From the NCBI RefSeq assembly GCF_030273445.1, contig NZ_CP120678.1, positions 659,501 to 723,500 on the forward strand: DNA of 64,000 nt, in the 5' to 3' direction. The translations under genes and the position numbers were made by a program. The notes beneath the pieces were generated by a model. It was not told where the DNA came from. It searched no databases and saw only the letters and a list, made by a program, of their open reading frames with translations. Source of the stretch: Selenobaculum gibii. GTDB taxonomy: Bacteria > Bacillota > Negativicutes > ICN-92133. Positions 19,157 through 63,700 of this stretch are shown piece after piece. Each line of letters begins with the position of its first letter. Within the stretch, counting starts at the first letter, position 1.

Positions 19157-19792
19157 ATGAAGAAGGTTTTATCAGAAGAGATAGCACTATTTGCGATATG
19201 CGCTTCATTTTTTGCAACAGAAGTTGAGGCAGGTACATTGTTAGATAAAAGTGATCAAATTGTATTAGTGCGGGCAAAAGAGACGCTGGCTAAAGTAGGT
19301 TTTTATGAAAAAAATAATAAAAGTCATTGGATTGAAAAATGGCAGACGAGCGGTTACATTGGAAGAAATGGGCTAACGACGGATAAACATGAAGGCGATG
19401 GGAAAACGCCAATTGGTGTATATGATCTTGGTTTAGCTTTTGGCGTAGAAAAAAATCCTGGAACAAAAATTCCCTATAAAGAACTCGATGAAAAAGATGT
19501 GTGGGTCGATGATATAAATTCTAAGTATTATAATCGATATGTGAGAAGTGATATTGCTGATAAAGATTGGATTTCAGAGGAACATTTATGCAATTATAAA
19601 GAAAGTTATACTTATGCAATTGTAATTGAATATAATACTCAGCCGATTGTGAGAGGAGCTGGTTCAGCAGTTTTTTTACATGTTGAAACTAAGGAACCTA
19701 CAGCGGGATGTGTGAGTATTCCAAAAAAATATATGAAAAAGTTTTTGCAACTATTAAAACCAGGTGCTAAAATTATTATTACCAGGTACTAA
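19157..19792 (+). CDS. secreted L,D-transpeptidase (YkuD domain)
   Basis: 211 residues with an N-terminal signal-like segment ending near VEAG. The catalytic motif is seen as FLHVETKEPTAGCVSI, where Cys is the nucleophile of L,D-transpeptidases that make 3-3 cross-links or attach proteins to peptidoglycan. Upstream it has GYIGRNGLTTDKHEGDGKTPIG, typical of the ErfK/YkuD group. The gene is 20 nt downstream of the SDR gene and likely in its operon. A perfect promoter for the next transcript starts 8 nt after its stop. Confidence 0.85.
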   Translation: MKKVLSEEIALFAICASFFATEVEAGTLLDKSDQIVLVRAKETLAKVGFYEKNNKSHWIEKWQTSGYIGRNGLTTDKHEGDGKTPIGVYDLGLAFGVEKNPGTKIPYKELDEKDVWVDDINSKYYNRYVRSDIADKDWISEEHLCNYKESYTYAIVIEYNTQPIVRGAGSAVFLHVETKEPTAGCVSIPKKYMKKFLQLLKPGAKIIITRY

Positions 19793-19799
19793 ATTTTGC

Positions 19800-19828
19800 T
19801 TGACAATATTATTAGCTATATGTATAAT
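19800..19828 (+). promoter_or_regulatory. consensus promoter for the ZTP riboswitch/pfl transcript
   Basis: TTGACA (19800-19805) and TATAAT (19823-19828) with an ideal 17-nt spacer. Transcription would start near 19835, just before the first ZTP aptamer. Confidence 0.85.
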
Positions 19829-19861
19829 CAAAATTGTTATAATAAATAATTCATATGACAG

Positions 19862-19963
19862 GCAATATAGGACTGACGGATAAGTGGAGCACCACATGGA
19901 CTATATTGTAAAATAGAAGCCGACCGTCTGGGCATTTTTCGTTTATGCTTAGATGGTTTTTTT
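19862..19963 (+). promoter_or_regulatory. ZTP (pfl-motif) riboswitch 1 with terminator
   Basis: Senses ZTP/ZMP, a signal of 10-formyl-THF shortage. The aptamer 5' part is GACTGACGG ... GTGGAGCACCAC ... GGAC, closed by AATATAG / CTATATT pairing. The conserved 3' part is CCGTCTGGGCA at 19923-19933. This strand can instead pair with TGCTTAGATGG (19946-19956) to form a terminator followed by seven Ts, so ligand binding should turn expression on. No gene lies between it and the second copy. Confidence 0.85.
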
Positions 19964-20002
19964 GTACCATGAGTCAATTTTAATAAAGAGTTTTTAAGTG
20001 AA

Positions 20003-20113
20003 ATGGAATATGGATTGGCGGATATAGCGTGGTAGATGATCACGTGAACTATATGGTGAGAGAATTCGACCGCCTGGGCATGGAGTTTTATATTTTGCTC
20101 AGGGGGTCTTTCT
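20003..20113 (+). promoter_or_regulatory. ZTP (pfl-motif) riboswitch 2 with terminator
   Basis: Second aptamer in tandem: ATATGGATTGGCGGATATAG, GCGTGG/CACGTG-type stem, then GACCGCCTGGGCA at 20068-20080. The latter can pair with TGCTCAGGGGGTC (20096-20108) to make a terminator ending TCTTTCT. It precedes pflB by about 55 nt. Sequence differs from copy 1 outside the conserved positions, so the pair is not a recent duplication. Confidence 0.85.
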
Positions 20114-20166
20114 ATATGATAAACAAGGTATTCTAAATATAGCTAAGATTGGAAAGGGTGGTTTTC

Positions 20167-22401
20167 ATGGATTTTGAATATTGGCAAGGTTTTAATGAGG
20201 GTAGATGGCAACAAATTATTGATGTAAGAAATTTTATTCAAGCAAATTATAAGCCTTATGATGGCAACGCAGATTTCTTAGCAGGGATTACTGATAAAAC
20301 AAAAAGAGTATGGGATAAATGTCTGGATTTATTAGCACTTGAACACGAAAAAGGTGGTGTTCTTGATGTAGATACAACGAAAGTTTCTAAGATTGTATCG
20401 CATAAAGCTGGATACATTGACAAAGAGAATGAAGTGATTTTGGGACTTCAGACGGAAAAACCATTATGCCGTGGTGTTGTTGTAAACGGTGGAGAACGTA
20501 TGGCTGAGCAGGCTTGTAGTGAATATGGCTATACACTAAGCCCTGAAATTAAAGAGATTTACACGAATCATGCAACTACGCATAATAGTGCAGTATTTAG
20601 TGTTTATACTCCAGAGATGCGCAAGGCTCGTAAATTAGGAATTATTACAGGTCTTCCTGATGCGTATGGTAGAGGGAGAATTATTGGCGATTATCGTCGT
20701 ATTGCTCTCTATGGAATTGATGTTCTTATTGAAAAAAAACAACGTGATTTGGATGTTTTATTTGATAAACCTATGGATGAAGAAACGTTGCGTAGCCGTA
20801 GTGAAATTGCTCAGCAAATAAAAGCGCTTAAAGATATGATTGCTATGGCAAAAGAATATGGCTGTGATATTGCAAGGCCAGCAAGAAATGCAAAAGAAGC
20901 AGTCCAAGCTGTATACTTTGGTTATTTAGCCGCAATTAAAGAACAAAATGGAGCGGCAATGTCGATTGGCCGTGTTTCTACGTTCTTAGATATCTATATT
21001 GAACGCGACTTGAAAAAGGGTATTTTAACAGAAGAAACAGCACAAGAATTGATGGATCAATTTGTCATTAAACTTCGTTTGGCAAGAATGCTTAGAACCC
21101 CAGAATACAACGAATTATTTGCTGGTGATCCGTTATGGGTAACCGAATCTATCGGTGGAATTGGTCAAGATGGCCGTAGCATGGTAACAAAAAGTTCTTA
21201 CCGTATTTTGCATACGTTATATAACCTTGGCCCAGCACCAGAACCGAATCTAACTGTATTATGGTCAGATAAATTACCGGAAAATTTTAAGAAGTTTTGT
21301 GCGCAGGTTTCGATTGATACAAGTGCAATTCAATATGAGAATGATGAAATTATGCGTCCAATTTACGGCGATGATTATGGAATTGCCTGCTGTGTATCTG
21401 CAATGCAAATTGGCGGACAAATGCAATTCTTTGGCGCACGGGCAAATTTAGCAAAATCTTTATTATTAGCAATCAATGGTGGTAAAGATGAAAATACAGC
21501 TGAACAATTATCACCATCGATGCCAATCTTGACAGATGAATATTTGGATTACGATAAAGTGCGTAAAAATTATTCTGAGGTATTAGAATGGTTGGCAGAG
21601 TTATATGTAAACACGATGAATTTAATTCATTTCATGCATGATCGTCATGCATATGAAGCGGGACAAATGGCGCTTCATCATAGCGAAGTAAAACGTTTGA
21701 TGGCGTTTGGTGTAGCAGGATTATCCGTTGCAGTAGATTCTTTAAGTGCGATTCGCTACGCGAAAGTAAAAGCAATTCGTGATGAAAATGGAATTGCAAA
21801 AGATTTTGCAATTGAGGGTGATTTCCCTAAGTATGGGAACAATGATGAACGCGTTGATAGTATGGTAAAAGAATTAACGCATGAATTTATTACAAAACTT
21901 AGAAAGCATCCTGCATATCGTAATGCAGAGCATACTTTATCTGTGCTTACGATTACTTCGAATGTTATGTATGGCAAGAAAACGGGAGCTACTCCAGACG
22001 GGCGTAAAGCTGGTGAAGCTTTTGCACCTGGGGCAAATCCTATGCATGGACGTGATCAACATGGAGCATTGGCGGCGATGAAATCGGTAACAAATATTTC
22101 TTATAGCGATTGCCGTGACGGTATTTCTTATACTTTCTCCATCGTACCAGGAGCCTTGGGCAAGACTGCTGAAGAACGCAGGAAAAACCTCGTTGCTTTG
22201 CTAGACGGTTATTCCTTATTAAAAGGACACCATATCAATATCAATGTATTTGATCGTTCGTTGTTAGAAGCGGCAATGCAAGAGCCGGAAAAATATCCAC
22301 AACTTACGATTCGCGTTTCTGGTTATGCGGTTAATTTCGTGAAATTGAGTAAAGCACATCAATTAGAAGTGATTCGCAGGACTTTCTATGACGCAGTCTA
22401 A
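20167..22401 (+). CDS. pflB: pyruvate formate-lyase (glycyl radical enzyme)
   Basis: 744 residues. Converts pyruvate and CoA to acetyl-CoA and formate. The adjacent catalytic cysteines are Cys408-Cys409 in IACCVSAM, and the radical Gly719 lies in RVSGYAVNF, both as in PFL proper rather than glycerol/choline lyases. The start is ATG 20167 (AAAGGG upstream); an in-frame TTG at 20149 is unlikely. It is controlled by two upstream ZTP riboswitches, tying formate (C1) supply to folate status. It overlaps pflA by 14 nt. Confidence 0.97.
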
Positions 22402-62252: not shown

Positions 62253-62299
62253 CTATTTTTGTAAAGGATAACAAATTTTATCTTAGAATTACATAGGAG

Positions 62300-62510
62300 A
62301 AATAGGTGTCGAAAGACTTAATAGGGAAGTCCGGTGAAAAACCGGTGCGGTCCCGCCGCTGTAACAGGGAGTAAGGCTACATGAATGTCACTGGGAGAAA
62401 TCTTGGGAAGGCGTAGCTAAGCAATGATCTGGAGCCAGAAGAACTGCCTATTTAACAATCACCGTTAGACCTGCGAGCGATGGGGAGGAGATTTCTGAAT
62501 TTTATTGACA
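62300..62510 (+). promoter_or_regulatory. cobalamin riboswitch 1
   Basis: P1 closes as AAATAGG / CCTATTT (62300, 62447). Core motifs: GGGAAGTCCGGTG, AACCGGTGCGGTCCCGCCGCTGTAACAG-type block (62341-62368), and GAGCCAGAAGAACTGCC. The 3' expression platform carries CACCGTTAGACCTGCGAGCGATGG. A terminator follows at 62542. No gene follows. Confidence 0.95.
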
Positions 62511-62583: not shown

Positions 62584-62637
62584 GATTAGAATTTATATGA
62601 TAATGAATGAAAGATTTGACAATTAAATATAAACGGG

Positions 62638-62823
62638 AAACAGGTGAATATTTATTGCTAATTTATTAAAGCAAGTGCAATAAATAAACTTTATGGGAAA
62701 GTTCGGTGAGAGTCAAACTCAATTCCAACGCTGTCGCGCAACTGTAAAAGTGAGCTATCGTATCGAAAACCTCTTGCAAAGGGATAGGATAGCAATGAAC
62801 TTAAGTCAGAGCACCAACTGTTT
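62638..62823 (+). promoter_or_regulatory. cobalamin riboswitch 2 (divergent)
   Basis: P1 closes as AAACAG (62638) / CTGTTT (62818). Cobalamin core blocks are present in divergent form: GGGAAAGTTCGGTGAGAGTC, CGCGCAACTGTAAAAGTGAGC, and AAGTCAGAGCACCAACTG. It is not a copy of riboswitches 1 and 3. Two hairpins (62920, 63052) follow and no good ORF begins nearby. Confidence 0.8.
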
Positions 62824-62919
62824 CTAGCATCCAAGGAGTGTCTGCGCAGTACAGATCTGGGTTATAAAATGAGTCTGAATAAAGTATTTTATTCGGAAAA
62901 TTTTCGCTGATGAAAATGC

Positions 62920-63461: not shown

Positions 63462-63491
63462 AGCAAAGTTAATAAAAAATAAATAGTGAAG

Positions 63492-63700
63492 AAATAGGTG
63501 TCGAAAGACTTAATAGGGAAGTCCGGTGAAAAACCGGTGCGGTCCCGCCGCTGTAACAGGGAGCGAGGTTACATTTATGTCACTGGGAGAAATCTTGGGA
63601 AGGCGTAGCCAAGCGATGATCTGAAGCCAGAAGAACTGCCTATTAGACAATCACCGTTAGACCTGCGAGCGATGGGAAGGGGATTATGATGCTAGGAGTA
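63492..63700 (+). promoter_or_regulatory. cobalamin riboswitch 3
   Basis: Near copy of riboswitch 1: P1 AAATAGG / CCTATT (63492, 63639), identical GGTG...GTAACAGGGAG core and identical CACCGTTAGACCTGCGAGCGATGG platform block, with about a dozen scattered changes overall. The terminator at 63720 lies between it and the next gene, 130 nt away. Confidence 0.95.

What the first reader, a model, noticed from the sequence alone, without database searches (positions are those of the whole stretch)
19800..20166. Tandem ZTP riboswitches, each with its own terminator, on a pfl operon
Two complete pfl-motif aptamers (CCGTCTGGGCA and CCGCCTGGGCA) follow a consensus promoter and precede pflB. The two are diverged, arguing for a long-lived tandem that gives steeper, double-gated response to ZTP. 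It links formate production to 10-formyl-THF shortage; fhs and folD, which use formate, are also in the window but carry no ZTP motif.
Basis: partly seen in the sequence, partly recalled or inferred. Interest (0 to 1): 0.6.

Follow-up and report, generated by a model that had tools for sequence, protein, structure and literature searches.

The report
ZTP riboswitch plus decayed second copy
An anaerobic bacterium's formate-making operon is controlled by one normal RNA sensor for folate shortage, followed by a worn second copy that has lost parts needed for sensing; the tandem is a known kind, and a likely fat-synthesis repressor site next to the promoter is the less expected part.

Summary
Two ZTP (pfl-motif) RNAs do lie in tandem between a 12/12 sigma-70 promoter and pflBA, each with its own terminator, and both are more than chance. 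But they are not two complete aptamers. Copy 1 (19859-19940) is canonical (RF01750 61.9 bits, cut-off 39). Copy 2 (20002-20086) scores 19.7 with Rfam and 30.3 (E 3.7e-6) with a class-specific model that excluded the window copies. It keeps the pseudoknot (GGCGG/CCGCC) and the ligand-contacting U and G. It has lost the P3 G-C pair that gates terminator nucleation, a C present in all other aligned copies, and one J1/2 nucleotide. Its terminator survives with a poor U-tract. I read copy 2 as a decayed or very weak gate, so the 'steeper double-gated response' is not supported. Tandem ZTP riboswitches are already published. In related genomes I found seven more, six on an OFA-family MFS transporter and one on moeA, none on pfl. 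The genome encodes FapR, whose own promoter carries a like box, and four related pfl leaders carry one too. If real, both carbon products of Pfl would be read back onto its operon.

The parts
19754..19770 (.). weaker FapR-type box (TTAAAACCAGGTGCTAA), 22 bp from the main box; lies inside the end of the upstream ORF
   Evidence: 2 mismatches to the box pattern; 14.2 bits with a PWM from fapR promoters of ten relatives, second best place in the window. May be a coding coincidence.
19776..19792 (.). candidate FapR operator TTATTACCAGGTACTAA, 7 bp upstream of the -35; includes the stop codon of the upstream ORF
   Evidence: 1 mismatch; the only other place in the genome with <=1 mismatch is the fapR-plsX promoter. 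PWM score 20.2 of 22.4, best place in the window. Genome encodes FapR, NF003359 254 bits.
19800..19828 (+). sigma-70-type promoter TTGACA-17-TATAAT
   Evidence: 12 of 12 matches
19859..19940 (+). ZTP/ZMP riboswitch aptamer, copy 1 (canonical; pseudoknot GACGG/CCGTC)
   Evidence: RF01750 61.9 bits over cut-off 39; 78.8 bits with R2; no departure at 25 columns conserved in >=95% of the other copies
19924..19963 (+). terminator 1: 12 continuous pairs sharing the P3/L3 strand, then 7 T
   Evidence: -15.3 kcal/mol, T-score 4.95; only 1 of 105 platforms has a better tail
20002..20086 (+). degenerate ZTP aptamer, copy 2 (pseudoknot GGCGG/CCGCC kept; P3 G-C pair, invariant C of CTG and one J1/2 base lost)
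   Evidence: 19.7 bits Rfam; 30.3 bits R2; pair counts; conserved-column departures; P3 energies
20068..20117 (+). terminator 2: GACCGCC...GGGGGTC with one G.G mismatch, tail TTTCTATAT
   Evidence: -21.4 kcal/mol, T-score 3.16, lower than 75 of 105
20150..20162 (+). purine-rich putative ribosome-binding site TGGAAAGGGTGGT, well downstream of terminator 2
   Evidence: sequence; inference
20167..22401 (+). pflB, formate C-acetyltransferase
   Evidence: TIGR01255 1156 bits
22388..23134 (+). pflA, Pfl-activating enzyme
   Evidence: TIGR02493 251 bits

Best explanation
One promoter transcribes a leader that carries a canonical ZTP/ZMP ON-switch (copy 1) and then a degenerate second ZTP copy with its own terminator, ahead of pflBA. 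When ZMP/ZTP rises, copy 1 holds P3 and the pseudoknot and blocks terminator 1. Polymerase then meets copy 2, whose pseudoknot and ligand-contact bases remain but whose P3 stem and parts of J1/2 are broken. Copy 2 therefore most likely binds ZTP poorly or not at all, and terminator 2 removes a roughly fixed fraction of transcripts. ZTP control would thus rest mainly on copy 1, with copy 2 scaling output down. Shown by sequence: architecture, homology, the lost and kept elements, and the terminators. Inferred: ligand response, termination efficiency, and that copy 2 is decaying. The promoter probably also carries FapR control, direction unknown.
For: Copy 1 is typical of its class in score and conserved bases. 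Copy 2 scores far below nearly all true members: 36.7 bits with a model that even included it, against 49.7-86.9 for the other 105 strong matches in the first 100 sources. In a wider check only G313 and G303 copies were as low, at 34-36 bits, and those carry long linkers with normal core strings. In A1 copy 2 alone breaks the P3 G-C pair (GC in 92 of 93) and alone has U for C at column 16. The equivalent pair, G84-C98 of the C. beijerinckii pfl switch, must be broken for its terminator to nucleate and is stabilised by ZMP (PMC10687018). A single base-pair change in P3, pseudoknot or terminator can strongly perturb function (work cited in PMC7337938). Canonical P3 is +2.3 kcal/mol in copy 2 and -4.2 in copy 1. 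The 34 pfl leaders in relatives have one ZTP copy each.
Against: The pseudoknot strands of copy 2 are fully complementary, the U and G that contact the Z base are kept, P1 and P2 can form, and its terminator stem is strong. That is more than free decay would leave after so long a branch. A fully ligand-blind strong terminator would cost Pfl expression. The mismatched 3' arm GCTCAGGGGG also occurs in a sound-looking switch (L037, first copy). No close relative of the species is held, so conservation of copy 2 cannot be tested. An alternative P3-like stem (AAUUC/GAGUU, -1.6 kcal/mol) is possible.
Confidence: 0.5

Rival explanations
1. Working tandem: copy 2 still binds ZTP, with lower affinity, and the two gates in series give a larger and shifted response.
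For: Pseudoknot and Z-contact bases kept; strong terminator kept; tandem ZTP systems with two sound copies exist in the class and in the literature (PMC9481103). A toy calculation with arbitrary parameters gives a steeper curve only if the affinities are matched; a tenfold weaker second gate raises EC50 without steepening.
Against: Loss of the P3 pair, the invariant C and a J1/2 base; P3 unstable.
Confidence: 0.25
2. Copy 2 is an inert relic: terminator 2 hardly works and the leader behaves as a single switch.
For: Tail TTTCTATAT scores below 75 of 105 platforms; G.G mismatch in the stem.
Against: Stem of -21.4 kcal/mol, stronger than terminator 1.
Confidence: 0.2
3. Copy 2 has been retuned to another purine or Z derivative.
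For: Divergent, with a possible alternative P3 stem.
Against: The bases known to contact the Z nucleobase are unchanged; no relative shows the same variant.
Confidence: 0.04
4. The second match is chance, not a ZTP homologue.
For: Rfam score 19.7, near the whole-genome noise level (E 0.70).
Against: E 3.7e-6 in the window and 1.6e-4 in the genome with a model without the window copies, directly 3' of a true copy, with a terminator in register.
Confidence: 0.01

Closest known systems
Tandem ZTP riboswitches (pseudo-cooperative class; PMC9481103, five instances, four with THF-metabolism genes and one moeA)
   Same: Two ZTP copies in a row before one gene, each with its own terminator, no ORF between.
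   Different: Here copy 2 is degenerate and the target is pflBA. The paper's supplementary list could not be read, so whether this locus is among the five is unknown.
Single ZTP switches on pfl (e.g. Thermosinus carboxydivorans, PMC7337938; 34 leaders)
   Same: ON logic, P3 shared with the terminator; copy 1 is 67/78 identical to the pfl switch of L059.
   Different: An additional downstream copy and terminator.
Tandem ZTP on OFA-family MFS transporters (L034-L038, L214)
   Same: Same layout; copy starts 117-129 bp apart (143 here); they are the nearest sequences to copy 2 in the tree, without support.
   Different: Both copies sound; another gene.
Glycine riboswitch with a ghost aptamer (PMC6944388)
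   Same: One copy of a former tandem degrades.
   Different: There the ghost aptamer is a scaffold touching the working aptamer; here two separate platforms.

Membership tests
ZMP/ZTP riboswitch RF01750, copy 1 | score over the family's gathering threshold | tested here: met
   61.9 against 39 bits
ZMP/ZTP riboswitch RF01750, copy 1 | P1, P2, P3 and J1/2-L3 pseudoknot | tested here: met
   alignment; GACGG/CCGTC; A-U against G-C covary without exception in 93 sequences
ZMP/ZTP riboswitch RF01750, copy 2 | score over the gathering threshold | tested here: not met
   19.7 against 39 bits
ZMP/ZTP riboswitch RF01750, copy 2 | homology to the family | tested here: met
   30.3 bits, E 3.7e-6, with R2
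ZMP/ZTP riboswitch RF01750, copy 2 | J1/2-L3 pseudoknot | tested here: met
   GGCGG/CCGCC
ZMP/ZTP riboswitch RF01750, copy 2 | three-pair P3 with closing G-C | tested here: not met
   U.C at columns 85-99, the only broken one of 93; +2.3 kcal/mol
ZMP/ZTP riboswitch RF01750, copies 1 and 2 | binds ZMP/ZTP | not testable with these tools
   needs in-line probing or ITC
Pseudo-cooperative tandem riboswitch | two copies of one class, each with its own platform, no ORF or promoter between | tested here: met
Pseudo-cooperative tandem riboswitch | both copies ligand-responsive with similar sensitivity | tested here: inconclusive
   structure of copy 2 argues against; no binding data
FapR regulon member (pfl promoter) | 17-bp inverted repeat like that at fapR, and a FapR in the genome | tested here: met
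FapR regulon member (pfl promoter) | box within or just downstream of the promoter | tested here: not met
   the box lies 7 bp upstream of the -35; B. subtilis fap boxes are described within or immediately downstream of promoters (PMC5052256)
FapR regulon member (pfl promoter) | FapR binding relieved by malonyl-CoA | not testable with these tools
   needs EMSA

The most novel reading that the evidence does not exclude
The pfl operon reads back both carbon products of its enzyme: formate through 10-formyl-THF and ZTP at the riboswitch, acetyl-CoA through malonyl-CoA and a FapR-like regulator at the promoter. FapR control would extend beyond lipid genes to pyruvate cleavage, in this species and in several related pfl leaders. 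The degenerate second ZTP copy is kept as a fixed attenuator that sets the ceiling.
Probability: 0.25. Interest if true: 0.6.

Novelty: new variant of a known kind. Interest (0 to 1): 0.4.

Why it matters
It corrects a tempting reading (two gates, steeper response) with a testable structural reason, and gives a natural case of a tandem riboswitch losing one sensor while keeping its terminator. Seven further tandem ZTP systems in the same class, six of them on one transporter family, make a comparative set. The FapR-type box beside the promoter raises an easily tested link between fatty-acid status and pyruvate formate-lyase.

Tried and rejected
A promoter between the copies: none of 9/12 or better. 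Degenerate second copies hidden in other pfl leaders: none in 34 relatives of the class nor in 80 named pfl loci. Origin of copy 2 by duplication of copy 1 or from an OFA-type switch: unresolved; the tree puts it beside OFA tandem copies without support, and the AU test does not reject sisterhood with copy 1 (p 0.56). One of the four conserved-column departures listed for copy 2 (column 35) is a MAFFT shift in P2 and is not counted. The C. beijerinckii mutagenesis paper and the original ZTP paper are not held. A 2025 paper on contiguous riboswitches does not mention ZTP. I found no paper linking FapR to pfl in the held library (hits judged by titles and counts, not read).

Full report
Observation. 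The window lies at C1:659501-723500 of a single-contig 2.68-Mb genome. The nearest named PflB is from Pectinatus frisingensis (73%), which suggests class Negativicutes (inference). Between an ORF ending at 19792 and pflB at 20167 lies a leader with a 12/12 sigma-70 promoter (19800-19828). Copy 1 (19859-19940) scores 61.9 bits with RF01750 (cut-off 39). Copy 2 (20002-20086) scores 19.7. pflB and pflA are secure.

Is copy 2 real? I aligned 60 ZTP RNAs, 59 from relatives plus this genome's other copy, without the window's two (A2), and built model R2. In the window, with filters off, copy 1 gets 78.8 bits and copy 2 30.3 (E 3.7e-6); the next hit has 11.2. In the whole genome copy 2 has E 1.6e-4. 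It is a homologue, not chance.

Is copy 2 intact? In an alignment of 93 copies (A1) the J1/2-L3 pseudoknot covaries perfectly (A-U 55, G-C 38, none broken). Both window copies obey this, one in each form. Copy 2 alone lacks the closing G-C of P3 and has U for an otherwise invariant C (column 16); it also has one base less at the P1-J1/2 border, and a C-to-U change makes a G.U in P2. The equivalents of the bases that contact the Z nucleobase (U94, G95 of the C. beijerinckii pfl switch) are kept. The lost P3 pair corresponds to G84-C98, which ZMP stabilises and which must break for the terminator to nucleate (PMC10687018). Folded alone, canonical P3 is -4.2 kcal/mol in copy 1 and +2.3 in copy 2. 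Copy 1 has no departures at 25 columns conserved in 95% of the other copies; 77 of 91 others have none and none has more than two; copy 2 has three after setting aside one alignment shift.

Expression platforms. Both copies share their P3/L3 strand with a terminator: 12 pairs and seven T for copy 1 (-15.3 kcal/mol, T-score 4.95), a longer stem with a G.G mismatch and tail TTTCTATAT for copy 2 (-21.4, 3.16). Of 112 platforms scanned, 105 gave a terminator by this method. With a sensor that seems broken and a terminator that seems whole, the likeliest behaviour is a roughly constant loss of transcripts at terminator 2. Termination efficiency was not measured, and a weak response cannot be excluded.

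Context. Of 105 ZTP copies examined in relatives, 34 precede pflB, 37 an OFA-family MFS transporter, 21 purH and 6 fhs (genes assigned by similarity to reference stretches). The pfl leaders have one copy. Tandem pairs were found in G032, G021, G068, G094, G073 and G332 on the OFA transporter and in G327 on a moeA-like gene (the moeA name is by eye). Tandem ZTP riboswitches, including one on moeA, are published (PMC9481103). A sample of 149 genomes of the phylum showed no tandem among 27 with a match. The window's genome has another sound copy on an OFA-family transporter (NF049980, L-lactate MFS transporter).

FapR. Leaders of the pflB genes closest to the window's (L047, L077, L061) carry a 17-bp inverted repeat. 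In the window's genome the only places with at most one mismatch to it are the fapR-plsX promoter and 19776-19792. The genome encodes FapR (254 bits), as do ten relatives tested. A matrix from the fapR promoters of those ten, without the window's genome, scores the pfl site 20.2 of 22.4, the best in the window; four relatives' pfl leaders score 17.7-19.4, and no OFA, purH or fhs leader exceeds 11.3. Caveats: the fapR boxes for the matrix were picked with a consensus I supplied, the search pattern was drawn from the pfl leaders themselves, and at two mismatches the pattern is hardly above its control. The position upstream of the -35 is unlike known fap promoters (PMC5052256), so the sign of control is open.

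Limits. No ligand data; no close relative of the species; origin of copy 2 unresolved; the literature library holds open-licence papers only.

Noticed in passing
window 19754-19792: Two FapR-type boxes 22 bp apart beside the pfl promoter; the stronger one resembles the box at the genome's own fapR-plsX promoter.
   Followed up: partly
window 62287-62465, 62624-62836, 63479-63657; L221:6535-6712: Three cobalamin riboswitch matches (98.6, 31.6 borderline, 98.6 bits) in 1.4 kb, with no ORF of 80 aa or more between them, before an 888-aa TonB-receptor-like gene; another (99.4 bits) before a similar receptor gene 5 kb on.
   Followed up: partly
L002:192-1583 (G000:C1, - strand): The genome's other sound ZTP switch sits on an OFA-family MFS transporter (best NCBIfam: L-lactate MFS transporter); 37 of 105 copies in relatives do the same, so a monocarboxylate or formate carrier may be a common ZTP target in the class.
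   Followed up: partly
L034-L038, L214, L215: Seven tandem ZTP pairs in relatives: six on OFA transporters, one on a moeA-like gene; in L038 the two copies are near-identical 129-bp repeats, i.e. a recent duplication.
   Followed up: partly
L047 and L077 leaders: Downstream of the single ZTP terminator a second strong promoter (TTGACA/TATAAT) with a FapR-type box upstream would bypass the riboswitch.
   Followed up: partly
L216, L217, L218: ZTP copies with long inserts in the linker before P3, which lowers their model score; not degenerate in the core strings.
   Followed up: no
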